Source: a virus
DNA length: 64,000 nucleotides
IMG/VR virus record: IMGVR_UViG_3300026478_000749
Location: 1-64,000 of that record
Reading direction: 5' to 3' (one strand)
Within the stretch, counting starts at the first letter, position 1, and every line of letters starts with the position of its first letter. The translations under genes were made by a program, and so were the position numbers. Of this stretch, positions 2,638 through 26,596 are shown in pieces. Under the pieces are notes generated by a model. It had not been told where the DNA came from and made no database searches. It saw nothing but the letters and a program-made list of their open reading frames with translations.

Positions 2638-3864
2638 CTATTTGTTAACAATGGATTTAAAGAATTGAACGCGGTCTGCACACACCTTTTTTAAAGAATA
2701 TTTGTCTTTAACTGTTTCATATAAACGATTACCAAGGTCTTCAATCATATTTGGGTTATCTATTAATCTTTTCATGTGCTTTGCCCAATCTTTATGATTT
2801 TTTCTTGGCGATACAAGTAATGCGTTACCGGCATCGTTAAATTTACCTTCATTAACAGCCGATACTAGATCCATAGTATATGGCATTGTTTCACTAGCAA
2901 TTATGGCTTTTTTATGGAAACCTGCCTCGATCACTTTTAATTGAGATTTACATGAGTTAAAATGTGATTCAAGCAGTGGTGCTAATGAAACATCAAAGTA
3001 GTTGTAATTTAATGCATATTTGGTAATATCCTGTGTCCATCTTCTAACATACGGAACATCCATTGATGGGTAATCTGACTGAACATAAGAAAGTAAAAAA
3101 TTTCTATAATTTTCGTCTAATGCTTTATATCCAGAAGTAAAAATACTTTCATATTTAGACCATACAGTTTCATGGGGTTGTATTGGTCTTTGTGTAATCT
3201 CTCCAGTTGTTTTGTTGATCTCATGAACACTGCCTCTTAAATCAAAACCACATAAAACAAATTGAGTTTTATTTTTATATTCATTTTGAATACTTTCTAT
3301 ACCGCTTTTCATTAACTCAATATCATATAAATGTGAAGACCCACCTAACCAGCCAAACCTAATCTTGTCAGACTTTAACGGGGTTGGCTTGAATTGTGGT
3401 TCTTCTTCATCTACAGCGTTTGGAAACACAATTACATTTTTAACCCCCAATCTTTTTTTGATTTCATTAGCAAAAAATTCTGTTGTACAGGTAACATAAT
3501 CTGCTGCTTTTAAGAAAGCTACTTTTTTTTCTGCAATGTTTTGTTTTTTAATTTGTTCAAACATCGGATGTCTTTGGTCAACGTTCCAAAAATCATCAAT
3601 ATCCATAATAACTTTGATGCCTCGTTTTTTTAACCAATCGATTCTTTCCAAATTTCTTTCGAATGGCACCATGTGTATAAAACTATGAAAGAGAACAATA
3701 TCATAGTTATCGAACACACTATCATCATCTTCTAGATTCATAACAATATCAACATGGATATCGTCAGAATGATTATTTCCAATAAATTTAAATGGGTCTA
3801 GTACTCTGTATTTGCCAACACCGTGGCCATCAGATGGGATTGCTAATATTCTTATTTTAGACAT
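2638..3864 (-). CDS. Glycosyltransferase, GT4-like (GT-B fold)
   Basis: A 408-residue protein with the architecture of GT-B glycosyltransferases. The N-terminal Rossmann half opens with IRILAIPSDGHGVGKYRVLDP and contains VIMDIDDFW (about 85-93). The C-terminal half holds KVIEAGFHKKAIIASE (about 309-324), matching the EX7E-like donor-binding region of GT4 enzymes, and ends with the usual helix that crosses back (EDLGNRLYETVKDKYSL). It probably transfers a sugar from a nucleotide-sugar donor. The acceptor (phage DNA base, virion protein or host glycan) cannot be read from sequence. It is followed downstream by the small DUF4494-like gene, separated by 58 nt that contain the latter's putative promoter. 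Length is normal for the family. Confidence 0.85.
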   Translation of the reverse strand: MSKIRILAIPSDGHGVGKYRVLDPFKFIGNNHSDDIHVDIVMNLEDDDSVFDNYDIVLFHSFIHMVPFERNLERIDWLKKRGIKVIMDIDDFWNVDQRHPMFEQIKKQNIAEKKVAFLKAADYVTCTTEFFANEIKKRLGVKNVIVFPNAVDEEEPQFKPTPLKSDKIRFGWLGGSSHLYDIELMKSGIESIQNEYKNKTQFVLCGFDLRGSVHEINKTTGEITQRPIQPHETVWSKYESIFTSGYKALDENYRNFLLSYVQSDYPSMDVPYVRRWTQDITKYALNYNYFDVSLAPLLESHFNSCKSQLKVIEAGFHKKAIIASETMPYTMDLVSAVNEGKFNDAGNALLVSPRKNHKDWAKHMKRLIDNPNMIEDLGNRLYETVKDKYSLKKVCADRVQFFKSIVNK

Positions 3865-19953: not shown

Positions 19954-22797
19954 ATGGCAAATTCAAACAGAGTATTCGTTTCTCCAGGTGTGTATACATC
20001 AGAGAAAGATTTAACATTCGTAGCTCAAAGTGTAGGTGTTACAACATTGGGTCTGGTTGGTGAGACTTTGAAAGGTCCAGCATTTGAACCAATTCTAATT
20101 TCAAATTTTGATGAATTTAGAACTTATTTTGGTGGTACTAGCCCCGCAAAAGATGGTGCTGGAAATCCAAAATATGAACTTCCATATGTTGCGAAATCTT
20201 ATTTACAAGAGTCAAACCAATTATTTGTAACCCGTGTATTAGGACTTACTGGATATAAACCAGGCAGAACTTGGGGCATCAAAGCCCTAGGTGGCGTAAC
20301 TCTTGGTTCACTAAGCGGATCAACAGCAGGTATTTCATTAGTACCAACAGCATTAGGCATAACAGGTAGCACAATCTATGCTGAATTATCAGGAAAAACC
20401 TCAACAGAAGGTTCTTCAATTACTGACTACTTGGTAGCAGCAACTAATTCTGGCGGTGTTTACGCGCACAACGAATGGTTCACAATCGGAGAAGTTCCTG
20501 AATCTGCTACTAGCAGTCTTACAGGGGTAGAATTGGTTTCACCAATTGGCTCAAATAACAATAAAGAATGGTACAACGTTTACTACACTAAAACAGGATC
20601 AACTGATTCAACAATTGATGGTGTATATTCATACCTTTTTGTTTACTCAACAGGTACATCAGCTTTCACTGTAACAAGATTTAAGTATAATGCATCATTG
20701 AATACCGATTATCATGATATGCAAGTTTGCCTATTGAGATCTAGAGGTAGCTATATTCAAAACGTATTAACACACAGAGTAACTGGCACAACTGTTAGCG
20801 TTAGTGGATCTGGATTATCAACTAATCCTTTAGCTGACTTTACAATTCAAGTAACTGATATCGATAGTGATGTTAGAACATTTAATTGTTCTTTAGATCA
20901 AACTTCCACAAAGTACCTTACAAAGGTAATTGGTGCAGATGTATTTGATAAAGATAGAATTGAATATCCATTATATGTACACGAAGCATATCCAAACTTA
21001 GTTTCAAATCTTTTTGAACAAGGTTTAATTAGAGGTTTAAGCACAACAGTTGTAAACGCAACTGAAGGTGATAACTTTATGACTCAGTGGGACATGGCCG
21101 GATCTTCAACCATCGTTTCTGAGGTTAGAGGTGGTAAGGTATTTGACCTATTCAGTTTCTTAACAATATCTGATGGTGACGCATCTAACTACGAAGTTAA
21201 AGTAACCGTTCAAAATATTGATTTAGATACAGGCGAATTTGATGTTCTTGTTCGTGATTTCAACGATACAGACGCAAATCAGGTTGTATTAGAAAAATAC
21301 AGCAGATGTACTATGAACCCAGATCTTCCTGGCTATGTTGGTAGAAAGATTGGTACTTCTGATGGCGAATATGAATTAAGATCTAAGTACATTATGTTGG
21401 TTATGGCAGATGATGCTCCAACAGATGCTATCCCAGCTGGTTTCAAAGGTGTAACAACAAAAGCTAACGTTGGTGGTATTCGTTTCAAAACAAAATACTA
21501 CGATGCTGGTGATGTTTTATACTACAATGTAGATGGTACACCTGTAACAACAAATGGTGATAAAGTGAAGAAAGTTACTTTAGGTTTATCTACAGACGAA
21601 CACTTTATTTTTGATAGAGATATGTTCAAATTTAAGGGTACCGATGCAACTGATTCATCTTTTGGTTTCCACTTGTCTGTTAACGCAGCAAATATTACAG
21701 GTACTACTGGTGAAAAATTATTTAAAACAACTTCATACGATTTAGAAGGTACTAATAAAGGTAAATTAGATGGTGTTAACTTCCGCAAATTTACATTACC
21801 AGTATTTGGTGGATTTGATGGTTGGGATATCTACAGAAATGTTAGATCAAACGGAGATGGTTTCATTTTCGGAAAGACAACTTATATAAGCGGACACACA
21901 ACTAATGGTGGTGTATTCAATAGTTTAGTTGGTAATTCAGATTACTACGCATTTTTACAGGGTATTGAAACATTCAAGAATCCTGAAGCTGTTGATATTA
22001 ACATTTTTGCTACACCAGGTATTAACTGGAACGACCATAGCTCACTTGTAAATCAAGCGGTTGATATTATTGAGAATGATAGAGCGGACTCTCTTTATAT
22101 CATCAATGCTCCTAATTTTAGCGGCACAACGGGTGCTAACGAAGTAATTGGTGCTTTAGATGATTTAGGATTCGATTCTAACTACTCAGCAACTTACTGG
22201 CCTTGGATTCAAGTAAGAGATACAGATAACGCTACTCAGCTTTATATTCCACCAACAGGTGAGGTATTAAAGAATATTGCATTAACTGATAATGTATCTT
22301 ACCCATGGTTCGCAGTAGCGGGTTACTCAAGAGGTCTTGTTAACTCAATCAAAGCAACTAAGAAGTTGACTCTTGATGAAAGAGACGAACTTTATAAAGC
22401 AAGAATTAACCCAATTGCAACATTCTCTGATACAGGTACTATTATTTGGGGTAACAAAACGTTACAAGTTAGAGAATCAGCACTTGATAGAATCAACGTA
22501 AGAAGATTGTTATTAAGAGCAAGAAAGTTAATCTCTGCAGTAGCTGTAAGATTATTGTTTGAACAAAATGATGATCAAGTTAGACAAGAGTTCTTAAGAT
22601 TGGTTAACCCAATTCTTGAATCAATTAAGAAAGAAAGAGGTCTTTATGATTTCCGTGTAACAGTATCAAACGATCCAGAAGATATTGATGCTAACACATT
22701 GAGAGGTAAGATTTACATCAAACCTACAAGAGCGTTAGAATTTATTGATGTTGAGTTTATTATTACACCAACAGGAGCTTCTTTTGAGAATATCTAA
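19954..22797 (+). CDS. 18: Contractile tail sheath protein, gp18-like
   Basis: A 947-residue major tail protein whose contraction drives the tube into the host. The N-terminus SNRVFVSPGVYTSEKDLTFV and GLVGETLKGPAFEPILISNFDEFRTYFGG are diagnostic of the gp18 sheath family. The C-terminal domain keeps the conserved core, with WGNKTLQV, INVRRLLLRARKLI, LFEQNDDQVRQEF and the final strand RGKIYIKPTRALEFIDVEFIITP, which makes the inter-subunit handshake. It is much longer than T4 gp18 (659), the extra mass lying in the central surface domains. Two in-frame stops end it (TAA TAG), followed by a 15-nt palindrome and a strong terminator. It is transcribed with, but separated by terminators from, the tube gene. 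Confidence 0.96.
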   Translation: MANSNRVFVSPGVYTSEKDLTFVAQSVGVTTLGLVGETLKGPAFEPILISNFDEFRTYFGGTSPAKDGAGNPKYELPYVAKSYLQESNQLFVTRVLGLTGYKPGRTWGIKALGGVTLGSLSGSTAGISLVPTALGITGSTIYAELSGKTSTEGSSITDYLVAATNSGGVYAHNEWFTIGEVPESATSSLTGVELVSPIGSNNNKEWYNVYYTKTGSTDSTIDGVYSYLFVYSTGTSAFTVTRFKYNASLNTDYHDMQVCLLRSRGSYIQNVLTHRVTGTTVSVSGSGLSTNPLADFTIQVTDIDSDVRTFNCSLDQTSTKYLTKVIGADVFDKDRIEYPLYVHEAYPNLVSNLFEQGLIRGLSTTVVNATEGDNFMTQWDMAGSSTIVSEVRGGKVFDLFSFLTISDGDASNYEVKVTVQNIDLDTGEFDVLVRDFNDTDANQVVLEKYSRCTMNPDLPGYVGRKIGTSDGEYELRSKYIMLVMADDAPTDAIPAGFKGVTTKANVGGIRFKTKYYDAGDVLYYNVDGTPVTTNGDKVKKVTLGLSTDEHFIFDRDMFKFKGTDATDSSFGFHLSVNAANITGTTGEKLFKTTSYDLEGTNKGKLDGVNFRKFTLPVFGGFDGWDIYRNVRSNGDGFIFGKTTYISGHTTNGGVFNSLVGNSDYYAFLQGIETFKNPEAVDINIFATPGINWNDHSSLVNQAVDIIENDRADSLYIINAPNFSGTTGANEVIGALDDLGFDSNYSATYWPWIQVRDTDNATQLYIPPTGEVLKNIALTDNVSYPWFAVAGYSRGLVNSIKATKKLTLDERDELYKARINPIATFSDTGTIIWGNKTLQVRESALDRINVRRLLLRARKLISAVAVRLLFEQNDDQVRQEFLRLVNPILESIKKERGLYDFRVTVSNDPEDIDANTLRGKIYIKPTRALEFIDVEFIITPTGASFENI

Positions 22798-23091: not shown

Positions 23092-23580
23092 ATGGCAGAT
23101 TTATTAATGAAAATGCCGGTTCCATATGAACCGAAACGTAAAAATAGGTTTATCCTAAGATTTCCATCATCTTTGGGTATCAACGAGTGGTATGTAACAT
23201 CTACATCCCGTCCTAGTGCTAAAATTAATTCAACTGAAATTCCGTTTTTAAATACTTCAACATATGTAGCAGGTAGATTTACCTGGGACCCAATTAAGGT
23301 TACTTTTAAAGATCCAATTGGTCCATCTGCATCCCAAGCATTGATGGAATGGTTCCGTCTTCATGCTGAATCCGTAACTGGTAGAATGGGTTATGCTGCA
23401 GGTTATAAAAAGAACGTAGAACTTGAAATGTTAGATCCAACAGGGGTTGTTGTTGAGAAGTGGATTTTAGAAGGCTGTTTCTTAACAAGTTTAAACTTTG
23501 GTGATCTTAGCTATTCAGAAGATGCTTTAGCTTCAATTGACGCTGAACTAAGAATGGATAGATGTATCCAAGTTTACTAA
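23092..23580 (+). CDS. 19: Tail tube protein, gp19-like
   Basis: A 162-residue tube subunit matching T4 gp19 in length (163). It has the family pattern: MPVPYEPKRKNRFILRFPSSLGINEWYV near the start, the RPSAKINSTEIPFLN and YVAGRFTWDPIKVTFKDPIGPSASQALMEW segments, and a C-terminal LEGCFLTSLNFGDLSYSEDALASIDAELRMDRC. Hexamer rings of this protein stack to make the tail tube inside the sheath. It is flanked by its own terminator and upstream motif, consistent with high separate expression. Confidence 0.97.
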   Translation: MADLLMKMPVPYEPKRKNRFILRFPSSLGINEWYVTSTSRPSAKINSTEIPFLNTSTYVAGRFTWDPIKVTFKDPIGPSASQALMEWFRLHAESVTGRMGYAAGYKKNVELEMLDPTGVVVEKWILEGCFLTSLNFGDLSYSEDALASIDAELRMDRCIQVY

Positions 23581-23745: not shown

Positions 23746-24486
23746 ATGGAAAATATTAACCCAATGGTTGCGTATGATGTTGTTCAACTACCTTCTCAAG
23801 GTGTACATTATTCCAACGGAAAAAAATCATTAAGAGTTGCATACCTAACCGCATCAGACGAAAATATTTTAATGTCTCCAAACTTGATTCAATCTGAAAC
23901 GGTTGTGGATGAATTATTAAAAAGAAAAATTTTAGATAAAGATATTTCTTTTGACGAGATTGTAGAAGAAGACAGACAAGCAATATTAATATTTTTAAGA
24001 AATACTGCATTTGGAACTGAGTATACTGTAACAATTACTGACCCAGGAACAAAAAAACAATTTGAAGCAGTAGTGGATTTATCTGTTTTAAAGGTTAAGG
24101 ATTTTAAATTAACAGCGGATGCTAATGGTGAATATACATTTAGCCTTCCAGTATCAAAAAAGAATGTAACTTTTAAGTTTTTATCAAACACACAAGAAAA
24201 AGAATTACAATTAATTAAAGAAACAAGTGGTACAAATGTCGCACCTGTTAATACAAAGAGATTGGAGATGATGATAAAATCAGTAGATGGTCAAAGAGAC
24301 CAAATGGCTATTTATCAATTTATTCAAAATCTACCAATTAAAGATTCTTTAGAATTTAAAAAATTTGTATCAGAAAATAAACCAGGTTTAGACTTAATAG
24401 TAGATGTAATCGCCCCGTCAGGAGAAAAAGTCCCAGTTTTGGTTGACTTTGGGGTGGAATTTTTTCGTCCCTTCTACGGAATATAA
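23746..24486 (+). CDS. Baseplate hub assembly protein, gp26-like
   Basis: A 246-residue protein of the T4 gp26 type (T4 baseplate protein family). It has the characteristic opening VVQLPSQGVHYSNGKKSLRVAYLTASDENILMSPNLI, then VVDELLKRKIL and FDEIVEEDRQAILIFLRNTAFG, a beta region, and a C-terminal helical part ending LVDFGVEFFRPFYGI. It acts in hub assembly or as the tail assembly chaperone paired with the tape measure protein encoded next. Near its end a +1 reading frame opens that encodes a gp51-like tail; see the next entry. No close TATTTATA motif, but TATTTTATAG lies about 35 nt upstream. Confidence 0.85.
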   Translation: MENINPMVAYDVVQLPSQGVHYSNGKKSLRVAYLTASDENILMSPNLIQSETVVDELLKRKILDKDISFDEIVEEDRQAILIFLRNTAFGTEYTVTITDPGTKKQFEAVVDLSVLKVKDFKLTADANGEYTFSLPVSKKNVTFKFLSNTQEKELQLIKETSGTNVAPVNTKRLEMMIKSVDGQRDQMAIYQFIQNLPIKDSLEFKKFVSENKPGLDLIVDVIAPSGEKVPVLVDFGVEFFRPFYGI

Positions 24487-24610
24487 AAAAAGTCAAATAG
24501 AAACTATACTATTTCTTGTCTCAAGAGGATTTAGTTATCAAGATATCTTAATCCTGCCAATTCACGAAAGAACAAGCATGATTAATGCTATATTACAAAA
24601 AACTGAATAA
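24473..24610 (+). CDS. gp51-like tail reached by probable +1 frameshift
   Basis: The +1 frame relative to the gp26-like gene is open from 24408 to the TAA at 24608-24610. From 24473 it encodes STEYKKSQIETILFLVSR then GFSYQDILILPIHERTS and ends INAILQKTE. The pattern 'F-x-x-x-x-GFS-x-x-D-I-x-x-x-P-I-x-x-R' resembles T4 gp51 and the C-terminal parts of tail assembly chaperones made by programmed frameshifting (lambda G-T, P2 E-E'). No ATG exists in this frame before residue 10 from its end. CGT CCC TTC at 24466-24474 offers a CCC-T slip, giving a 287-residue fusion. The tape measure gene follows 30 nt later. Frameshift site and product are inferred. Confidence 0.65.
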   Translation, partial: STEYKKSQIETILFLVSRGFSYQDILILPIHERTSMINAILQKTE

Positions 24611-24640: not shown

Positions 24641-26596
24641 ATGGCAGACATAAAAAAAGATTTTTACGACTTTTTAAGAAGTTTAGGTATCGATGATGAT
24701 GATGCAAAAAAAGCATCAGAAAAACACGCTAGTGCGATTGCTGATACAGCAGCCAAAGCCTCTAAATCAACGTCAACAACCTCAAGTGGTGGTAATAGTG
24801 TTGCAAGTGCACTAGGTGCTGCTTTTATAGATCAACAAGCTCAAACCTTAGCTAGAATTAATACAGAAACTGGTAAAAAAATACTCAATACTGTAAAGGG
24901 GATGGCGACATTTAATCCTTTAGAATTAATATCAACGGTTTTCGATGCTGGACTTGCAACAACCGAGGTTTTGTTAGGGGATATAGCTAAATTAAATGCT
25001 GAATTATTAGAAAAAACAAGGGGTGCTGGTGGGTATGTCGGCAGAATTGCAACCGAAATGATGGATACAACCAGATTCGCTATGATTGAAGCTCAGCGAT
25101 TTGGTGTTACAACAAACGAAACAATAAGCGCTGTTGAGTCTTTAATGGTTAATTCTGAGAGAATGGCAACATATAATGACAAGACCATATCAAATAGCAT
25201 GGTTGCGTCGTTAGCATTCACAAAGAATTCAAAAACAATATTAGAGAACGCTGAAAATTTTAGAAATGTTGGTATTGGCCTCGATGGTGCTGCAAAATCT
25301 ATTGAACAAATTGGTTCAAGATCAATAAAATTAGGTCTTAGTGCAAAAGCTACATCAGAAACCTTAATAAGCCAACTCGGTAAACTAAACGCATTTGGAT
25401 TCCAAAACGGAATAGCTGGTTTGGGTAAAATGGTTCAAGAAGCTCAAGCTTTAAAAATAAACATGGAAAGTATTTTTACCGTTGCAGATAAATTATATGA
25501 TCCAGAAAGTGCAATAAATTTAGCCGCTAATTTACAAGTTGTTGGTGGCGCCGTTGGCGATTTAGCAGACCCAATTAAACTAATGTATGATGCAACAAAT
25601 AATGTTGAATCGTTACAAACAAGTATTATTGGTGCAGCAAGAAGCTTAGCAACATACAATGCAGAACAAGGAAGATTTGAAGTAAGTGGAGCGAATTTAA
25701 GAAGAGCTAAAGCTATGGCAGATTCATTGGGTATATCAATGGGCGAGCTAACAAATATGGCAGTTAAAGGAGCCGCTAAATTTGAAGCAATGAGCGAATT
25801 GAATATGTTCCCATCATTAACAGATGACCAAAGAGAATTTGTTTCAAATATTGCAACAATAAAAGATGGAAAAGTTGGTTTCGATATACCTAAAAATATG
25901 GTTCAACAGATGGGTCTAACCAACGTTAAAGATGGATTTGTTAGTTTGAGTGATTTAACAGATAAACAACTAGCAGAATTACAGGATTTACAGAAAAAAG
26001 CTGCAGATGAAAAGCCAATAGATATTGCTAGAAACCAATTTAATGAAACAACAAAAATATTAAACGTAGCAACAGCAATTTACTTAAGATTAATGGAGGA
26101 TGTGAGAAGTGGACCGGCTGGGGATGCTGCAGCTAATTTAATGAAGAAGGCAGTCGATTTTACTGAAAATATTAACCCAACACAAAATAATACCGCTCAA
26201 ACAGTTAGACAAGTATATGGTGAGGCTACAGGAGCTGCTGGTGAAGCTTTAGATAAAATAATAGATAAGGTAAAAGGAGGAATGCCAAAAGAGGTACAAG
26301 AAACAATTAACTATCTAGAAACAAAACTAAGTGATATAACTAAAGATTTGAATATTCAGGAAAAAGCAACTGAGGTCCTAGAAAAAGCAAAAGAGTTAAT
26401 CGAAAGAGGTATAGAAAAAGGTAAAGATGCTTATGAGAATTTAAAGGGCTTTACAGGCGCCGTAGACATTAAAGTGGATATAAACAGTAATAGCACACAA
26501 TTAGCGGGTATTGTTGTGGATGAATTATCTAAAAATCCACAAATGAGAGCTGAATTTGTTTCTAATATCGTTAAGAGCACTAAAACATTTGCATAG
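24641..26596 (+). CDS. Tape measure protein, gp29-like
   Basis: A 651-residue, mainly helical protein placed right after the hub chaperone gene, where T4 has its tape measure gene 29 nearby (590 residues). It shows long heptad-type helices, Ala/Gly-rich amphipathic segments (LISTVFDAGLATTEVLLGDIAKLNAELL; ALKINMESIFTVADKLY) and a repetitive middle (RNVGIGLDGAAKSIEQIGSRSIKLGLSAKATSE), typical of tape measures. The C-terminal part is highly charged helix (EKATEVLEKAKELIERGIEKGKDAYENL). It sets tail length inside the tube. It ends with TAG, one of few non-TAA stops here. The assignment is from composition, length and synteny. Confidence 0.8.
   Translation: MADIKKDFYDFLRSLGIDDDDAKKASEKHASAIADTAAKASKSTSTTSSGGNSVASALGAAFIDQQAQTLARINTETGKKILNTVKGMATFNPLELISTVFDAGLATTEVLLGDIAKLNAELLEKTRGAGGYVGRIATEMMDTTRFAMIEAQRFGVTTNETISAVESLMVNSERMATYNDKTISNSMVASLAFTKNSKTILENAENFRNVGIGLDGAAKSIEQIGSRSIKLGLSAKATSETLISQLGKLNAFGFQNGIAGLGKMVQEAQALKINMESIFTVADKLYDPESAINLAANLQVVGGAVGDLADPIKLMYDATNNVESLQTSIIGAARSLATYNAEQGRFEVSGANLRRAKAMADSLGISMGELTNMAVKGAAKFEAMSELNMFPSLTDDQREFVSNIATIKDGKVGFDIPKNMVQQMGLTNVKDGFVSLSDLTDKQLAELQDLQKKAADEKPIDIARNQFNETTKILNVATAIYLRLMEDVRSGPAGDAAANLMKKAVDFTENINPTQNNTAQTVRQVYGEATGAAGEALDKIIDKVKGGMPKEVQETINYLETKLSDITKDLNIQEKATEVLEKAKELIERGIEKGKDAYENLKGFTGAVDIKVDINSNSTQLAGIVVDELSKNPQMRAEFVSNIVKSTKTFA

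What the first reader, a model, noticed from the sequence alone, without database searches (positions are those of the whole stretch)
24408..24610. Probable programmed +1 frameshift joining gp26-like and gp51-like sequences
After the gp26-like coding region the +1 frame stays open to 24610 and encodes a sensible gp51-like segment (FLVSRGFSYQDILILPIHER) with no usable ATG before it. A CCC-T slip at 24469-24472 would fuse them into about 287 residues. Tail assembly chaperones encoded just before the tape measure gene are classically made by frameshifting (lambda G/GT, P2 E/E'). In T4, 26 and 51 are separate genes, so a fused arrangement here would be a bridge between both solutions.
Basis: partly seen in the sequence, partly recalled or inferred. 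Interest (0 to 1): 0.75.

Follow-up and report, generated by a model that had tools for sequence, protein, structure and literature searches.

The report
Phage tail chaperone made by frameshift
A T4-like phage gene for tail building appears to make two proteins from one message by having some ribosomes skip one base at a conserved slippery site, a trick long said to be missing from the T4 branch of phages, and one that standard annotation overlooks in many genomes.

Summary
Confirmed, with a different slip site. The gp26-like gene (23746-24486) is overlapped by a +1 frame (24410-24610) that adds 41 codons after its stop. Nearly all of about 150 usable relatives from protein-level scans keep this extension (40-46 codons). 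In 35 independent pairs it evolves as coding sequence only in the +1 frame (pN/pS 0.22 versus 1.1 and 2.0). It also occurs, unannotated or miscalled, in cultured Flavobacterium, Microcystis, Bacillus and Streptococcus phages. The invariant site is TTT_CGN (TTT 55/55; CGN 54/55, although CGN is only 6% of arginine codons in these genes), the UUU_CGN +1 motif of influenza PA-X and plant amalgaviruses. The products are a short (246 aa) and a long (287 aa) tail assembly chaperone, the equivalent of lambda G/GT. T4 gp51 is a gp26 paralogue carrying a similar C-terminal tail, so T4 uses two genes where these phages use one plus a frameshift. Cyanophages have the same T6CG site but the tail lies in the -1 frame. 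Frameshifting itself is inferred from evolution; no peptide or reporter data exist.

The parts
23746..24486 (+). TAC-N: gp26-like short tail assembly chaperone, 246 aa, frame 0
   Evidence: PF12322 T4_baseplate 1.9e-7 above cut-off; phrog_150 baseplate hub 1.7e-10; single copy in 11 records
23746..24610 (+). TAC-NC: predicted frameshift product, join(23746..24465,24467..24610), 287 aa
   Evidence: extension conserved in relatives and under purifying selection in +1 frame; phrog_150 match extends into the tail, residues 12-268, 3.6e-11
24460..24468 (+). slip site TTT_TTT_CGT; P-site TTT 24463-24465 re-pairs on TTC 24464-24466, A-site CGT
   Evidence: TTT 55/55, preceding TTT 53/55, CGN 54/55 against 6.4% CGN background; only codons in the obligatory shift interval able to re-pair at +1 in all relatives
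24469..24472 (+).
   Evidence: CCC in 11, CCT in 43 of 54 clusters
24451..24455 (+). invariant GGGGT just upstream of slip site (SD-like, or 3' arm of a possible stem)
   Evidence: GGG codon 55/55 against 7.8% background, strongest synonymous conservation in the gene
24412..24425 (+). upstream conserved nucleotide block GCCCCGTCAGGAGA, function unknown
   Evidence: CCCC and GGA wobble bases conserved in 86/87 relatives, fixed 13 codons from GGGG
24487..24610 (+). C-terminal domain encoded only in the +1 frame
   Evidence: related to T4 gp51 C-terminus
24641..26596 (+). putative tape measure protein, 651 aa
   Evidence: position: an ORF of at least 250 codons follows in 154 of 178 loci, median gap 26 nt; no sequence match, so inferred
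23092..23580 (+). tail tube protein gp19-like
   Evidence: phrog_4542 5.2e-28

Best explanation
The locus is a tail assembly chaperone (TAC) gene of the T4 gp26/gp51 family whose two products come from one message by programmed +1 ribosomal frameshifting. Most ribosomes read to the TAA at 24484 and make the short chaperone (TAC-N). Some pause with tRNA-Phe on UUU (24463-24465) in the P site because the next codon, CGU, is rare in this phage. [quoted passage not shown] The two would coat the tape measure protein and recruit tail tube subunits, as lambda G and GT do. Shown here: conservation, coding selection on the tail, invariant slip site, family homology, single copy. Inferred: that ribosomes slip, the exact tRNA step, the ratio, and the function in assembly.
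For: +1 extension in nearly all usable relatives and in distant phages that keep a +1-capable P-site codon: SP-15 TTT_CAC, SagM-GXN1 TTT_CGT, Mel-JY01 and RM378 TTT_TGG, immuto CTT_TGG, LR756508 TTT_CTA. pN/pS 0.217 only in the +1 frame. In loci with the shortest overlap the shift must lie within about 8 codons, GAR TTT TTT CGN CCN TTC TAC GGA. CGN is 10% of Arg codons in the window and CGG is 0 of 528, yet CGG is the commonest A-site codon in the wider set (58/133). UUU_CGU +1 slippage was demonstrated for influenza PA-X (PMC3498833) and UUU_CGN is reported for amalgaviruses (PMC5052127). One TAC gene per genome in 11 records, unlike T4's two.
Against: No peptide, reporter or ribosome profiling data. 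No RNA structure around or downstream of the site better than shuffles in the window (z -0.5 to -1.2). Conservation of CGN, CCY and TTC can partly reflect dual coding of the overlap. PDB fold search found no solved TAC structure as a match.
Confidence: 0.86

Rival explanations
1. Transcriptional slippage: RNA polymerase drops one U in the T6 run, so a fraction of messages encode the long protein without ribosomal frameshifting; the protein product would be identical.
For: T6 run in 53/55 clusters; cyanophages keep the same T6 run with the tail in the -1 frame, which polymerase slippage could serve in either direction.
Against: Relatives with no T6 run keep the +1 tail: L238 and L278 TTC_TTT_CGC, SagM-GXN1 TTC_TTT_CGT, immuto TTT_CTT_TGG. 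Six Ts is short for bacterial polymerase slippage (general knowledge). It does not explain CGN.
Confidence: 0.06
2. The +1 ORF is a separate small gene translated from its own start or by reinitiation, as the annotated records imply.
For: TTG at 24443 in the window; some relatives have ATG 8 nt before or about 13 nt after the stop; GenBank lists small ORFs there in immuto, Mel-JY01 and SP-15.
Against: No start is conserved; 13 of 55 clusters lack any ATG/GTG/TTG in the +1 frame up to 30 nt past the stop. The tail resembles the fused C-terminus of T4 gp51. Strong synonymous constraint sits in frame 0 just before the slip site.
Confidence: 0.04
3. The shift occurs at CCC_T (24469-24472) as first proposed, or by -2 slippage on T6.
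For: CCC_T can re-pair at +1; a proline codon is used for +1 shifts in Listeria phage PSA and -2 is known in Mu (PMC5009743).
Against: CCC_T is absent in most relatives. -2 re-pairing is not possible at TTC_TTT sites.
Confidence: 0.04

Closest known systems
Lambda G/GT and P2 E/E' tail assembly chaperone frameshifts
   Same: Short and long products from one gene between tail tube and tape measure, long form by frameshift near the 3' end
   Different: Those are -1 shifts; here +1 at UUU_CGN; protein family is T4_baseplate PF12322
T4 gp26 and gp51 (Vladimirov, Gautam and Davidson 2022, Virology 566:9; known here only through title and citing papers)
   Same: gp26 = short form, gp51 = gp26 paralogue plus C-terminal tail
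   Different: T4 encodes them as two genes on opposite strands; the window has one gene and an overlapping frame
Cyanophage gp26 plus short 'gp51' ORF (S-SSM7 and IMG/VR relatives)
   Same: Same protein position and same T6CG nucleotides at the end of gp26
   Different: There frame 0 reads TTT TTC and the tail lies in the -1 frame (77 of 78); in the window frame 0 reads TTT TTT CG and the tail is at +1
Influenza A PA-X UCC_UUU_CGU and amalgavirus UUU_CGN +1 sites
   Same: UUU P-site codon and CGN A-site codon, +1
   Different: Eukaryotic RNA viruses; here a DNA phage with bacterial ribosomes and UUU in the E site
Listeria phage PSA and E. coli prfB +1 frameshifts
   Same: +1 direction in bacteria; prfB also has a G-rich element just upstream (general knowledge)
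   Different: PSA uses a proline codon; [quoted passage not shown]

Membership tests
Frameshifted tail assembly chaperone (G/GT type) | Gene lies between tail tube and tape measure genes | tested here: met
   gp19-like tube upstream; long ORF downstream in 154/178 loci; tape measure identity is inferred
Frameshifted tail assembly chaperone (G/GT type) | Overlapping second frame conserved and under coding selection | tested here: met
Frameshifted tail assembly chaperone (G/GT type) | Conserved slippery sequence | tested here: met
   TTT_CGN
Frameshifted tail assembly chaperone (G/GT type) | Long product made in minor amount and required for tail assembly | not testable with these tools
   needs proteomics and genetics
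T4 gp26/gp51 family (PF12322) | Match to T4_baseplate above the curated cut-off | tested here: met
   31.4 bits against 24.5
T4 gp26/gp51 family (PF12322) | Tail homologous to the gp51 C-terminus | tested here: inconclusive
   weak direct scores (hhalign 0.025; hmmsearch 0.0014-0.014 for three gp51s against best shuffle 0.036); indirect link through phrog_150 and phrog_634
T4 arrangement of two separate genes | Second gp26/gp51-like gene in the genome | tested here: not met
   one copy in own record and in 10 records up to 310 kb, which may be incomplete
UUU_CGN +1 frameshift class | UUU P-site with C next, CGN A-site | tested here: met
UUU_CGN +1 frameshift class | Measured +1 product | not testable with these tools
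   no reporter or mass spectrometry

The most novel reading that the evidence does not exclude
The chaperone slip site of T4-family phages is one ancestral T6CG site used with opposite polarity in different lineages (+1 in the window clade, -1 in cyanophages) and replaced by gene duplication in T4. The window clade is also a bacterial case of the PA-X-type UUU_CGN shift, aided by a new upstream element (GCCCCRUCAGGAGA...GGGGU) in hosts that do not rely on Shine-Dalgarno initiation.
Probability: 0.35. Interest if true: 0.75.

Novelty: new variant of a known kind. Interest (0 to 1): 0.62.

Why it matters
A 2016 review states that G-T frameshifting is widely conserved in long-tailed phages except T4 (PMC5009743), and a 2022 paper proposes separate short and long genes for T4-like phages. 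Here the T4 protein family itself is found with the frameshift solution, in a large uncultured clade and in cultured phages, so T4's two genes look like a derived replacement. The site gives a simple bacterial system for UUU_CGN +1 slippage and shows that the long chaperone is missing from many phage annotations.

Tried and rejected
Sequencing error: rejected, same offset in over 100 distinct assembled sequences. CCC_T site: not conserved. Stimulatory RNA structure: no signal in the window. Stem between the upstream CCCC and GGGG: complementary in 87/87 but invariant, so no covariation, and the next pair fails (57%); left unexplained. Shine-Dalgarno stimulation by GGGG: doubtful, since only 1 of 39 window genes has an SD-like core before its start. 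Phage tRNAs: none in the window. PDB fold search: no meaningful match; the viral fold library matched gp26-like baseplate hub proteins. Tape measure homology to immuto: none. Conservation counts from the motif scan were not used as evidence for the motif, because that set was selected by it.

Full report
What is in the window. Between a tail tube gene (23092-23580, phrog_4542 5.2e-28) and a 651-codon ORF in the tape measure position (24641-26596) lies a gp26-like gene, 23746-24486, matching PF12322 T4_baseplate and phrog_150. Its stop codon is overlapped by a +1 frame open from 24410 to 24610.

Is it real? Protein-level scans of IMG/VR gave 160 loci; 152 were usable, 107 distinct, in 55 clusters at 85% identity. 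The +1 extension is 40-46 codons in every cluster except L249, where the reading stops at 13 codons near a contig end. L033 lacks roughly 250 nt present in the otherwise near-identical L031 and is probably defective or chimeric. In 35 independent pairs, pN/pS of the tail is 0.217 in the +1 frame and 1.10 and 2.01 in the other frames; changes fall 257:152:539 on codon positions 1:2:3. No start codon is conserved, and 13 of 55 clusters have none in the +1 frame to 30 nt past the stop.

Where is the slip? In the shortest overlaps the +1 frame opens only 8 codons before the stop, so the change must happen in GAR TTT TTT CGN CCN TTC TAC GGA. Of these only TTT_T and TTT_C can re-pair at +1 in all relatives. 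TTT_C is in 55/55, TTT_T in 53/55. L238 and L278 (TTC_TTT_CGC) and L270 (TTT_CTC) narrow it to TTT_C. The A-site codon is CGN in 54/55 although CGN is 6% of Arg codons in the rest of the genes; in the window CGN is 10% and CGG is never used in 528 Arg codons. In distant cultured or named phages the P-site codon is again one that re-pairs at +1: TTT_CAC (SP-15), TTT_CGT (SagM-GXN1), TTT_TGG (Mel-JY01, RM378), CTT_TGG (immuto), TTT_CTA (LR756508). The motif equals the UUU_CGN class shown for influenza PA-X, where a sequenced peptide and codon re-pairing favoured P-site slippage from UUU to UUC (PMC3498833), and reported for amalgaviruses (PMC5052127).

Upstream signals. The GGG codon of FGVEFF is used in 55/55 clusters against 7.8% background; in loci with short overlap this wobble base is not dual-coded, so it is likely a cis signal. 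A second block, GCCCCRTCAGGAGA, lies a fixed 13 codons upstream, with wobble C and A conserved in 86/87. CCCC and GGGG could pair, but invariance gives no covariation test, and both arms would be inside or behind a ribosome at the slip site. Only 1 of 39 window genes has a Shine-Dalgarno core, so SD-type stimulation is uncertain. No function is assigned.

What the tail is. T4 gp26 and gp51 both match PF12322 (8.8e-64, 3.9e-52), and their families match each other in profile comparison at 1.2e-21 over 185 columns: gp51 is a gp26 paralogue with about 45 extra residues. Those extra residues match phrog_634 'baseplate hub assembly catalyst' (7.9e-8) and the C-terminus of phrog_150. The short cyanophage ORF called gp51 matches phrog_634 at 5.3e-25. 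The window fusion aligns to phrog_150 through position 262 of 282, into the tail. Direct tail-to-gp51 scores are weak (0.025; 0.0014-0.014 for three gp51s against a best shuffle of 0.036), so this homology is likely rather than proven. AlphaFold gives a confident model of a relative's fusion with three helices in the tail (mean pLDDT 85), and its nearest viral models include gp26-like baseplate hub proteins.

Comparison with T4 and cyanophages. T4 genes 26 and 51 are divergent; several other Straboviridae keep two genes, divergent or in tandem. The window record and ten relatives' records up to 310 kb hold one copy each. In cyanophages gp26 ends TTT TTC G and the tail is in the -1 frame in 77 of 78 distinct loci, most with an ATG just after the stop, so reinitiation is possible there. 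The nucleotides TTTTTTCG are the same in both groups, with the two frames exchanged. This polarity exchange at an aligned site (G-x-x-[DE]-F-F) is an observation here; common descent is not tested.

How it most likely works. By analogy with lambda G/GT (PMC5009743), the short form coats the tape measure and the long form also recruits tube subunits; this is inferred from family and position.

Novelty. Programmed frameshifts in chaperone genes, and +1 shifts in phages, are known (PMC5009743). PRFect summarises Vladimirov 2022 as some T4-like phages carrying separate short and long genes. Another paper credits the same work with polyT -1 signals in T4-like TAC-N genes (PMC12846349), so frameshifting in some T4-like phages may already be described; the full text was not available. 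I found no report of UUU_CGN +1 shifting in phages nor of a frameshifted chaperone in Flavobacterium phages in the papers held.

Noticed in passing
24412-24425 and relatives: A nucleotide block GCCCCRTCAGGAGA is conserved at wobble positions in 86/87 relatives at fixed distance from GGGG; function unknown.
   Followed up: partly
L213, L302-L381: Cyanophage gp26 genes end in TTTTTTC with the short 'gp51' ORF in the -1 frame (77/78), probably a -1 frameshift or reinitiation pair rather than an independent gene.
   Followed up: partly
L082:5712-5976, L083:5728-5964, L085:5715-5916: GenBank records of Flavobacterium immuto, Microcystis Mel-JY01 and Bacillus SP-15 annotate the +1 tail as separate small ORFs or only in part.
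   Followed up: yes
L033 about 3740-3760: About 250 nt including the chaperone tail and the start of the next ORF are missing compared with L031; chimera or defective phage.
   Followed up: partly
window, all genes: Only 1 of 39 genes has an SD-like core 5-20 nt before the start, as in Bacteroidota; host not determined.
   Followed up: partly
L298-L301: Distant gp26-like genes sit in contigs of Prevotellaceae, Bacteroidaceae and Gastranaerophilales genome bins, a hint of host range.
   Followed up: no
19954-22797: Tail sheath protein is unusually long (947 aa), about 450 residues longer than the phrog_23 profile.
   Followed up: no
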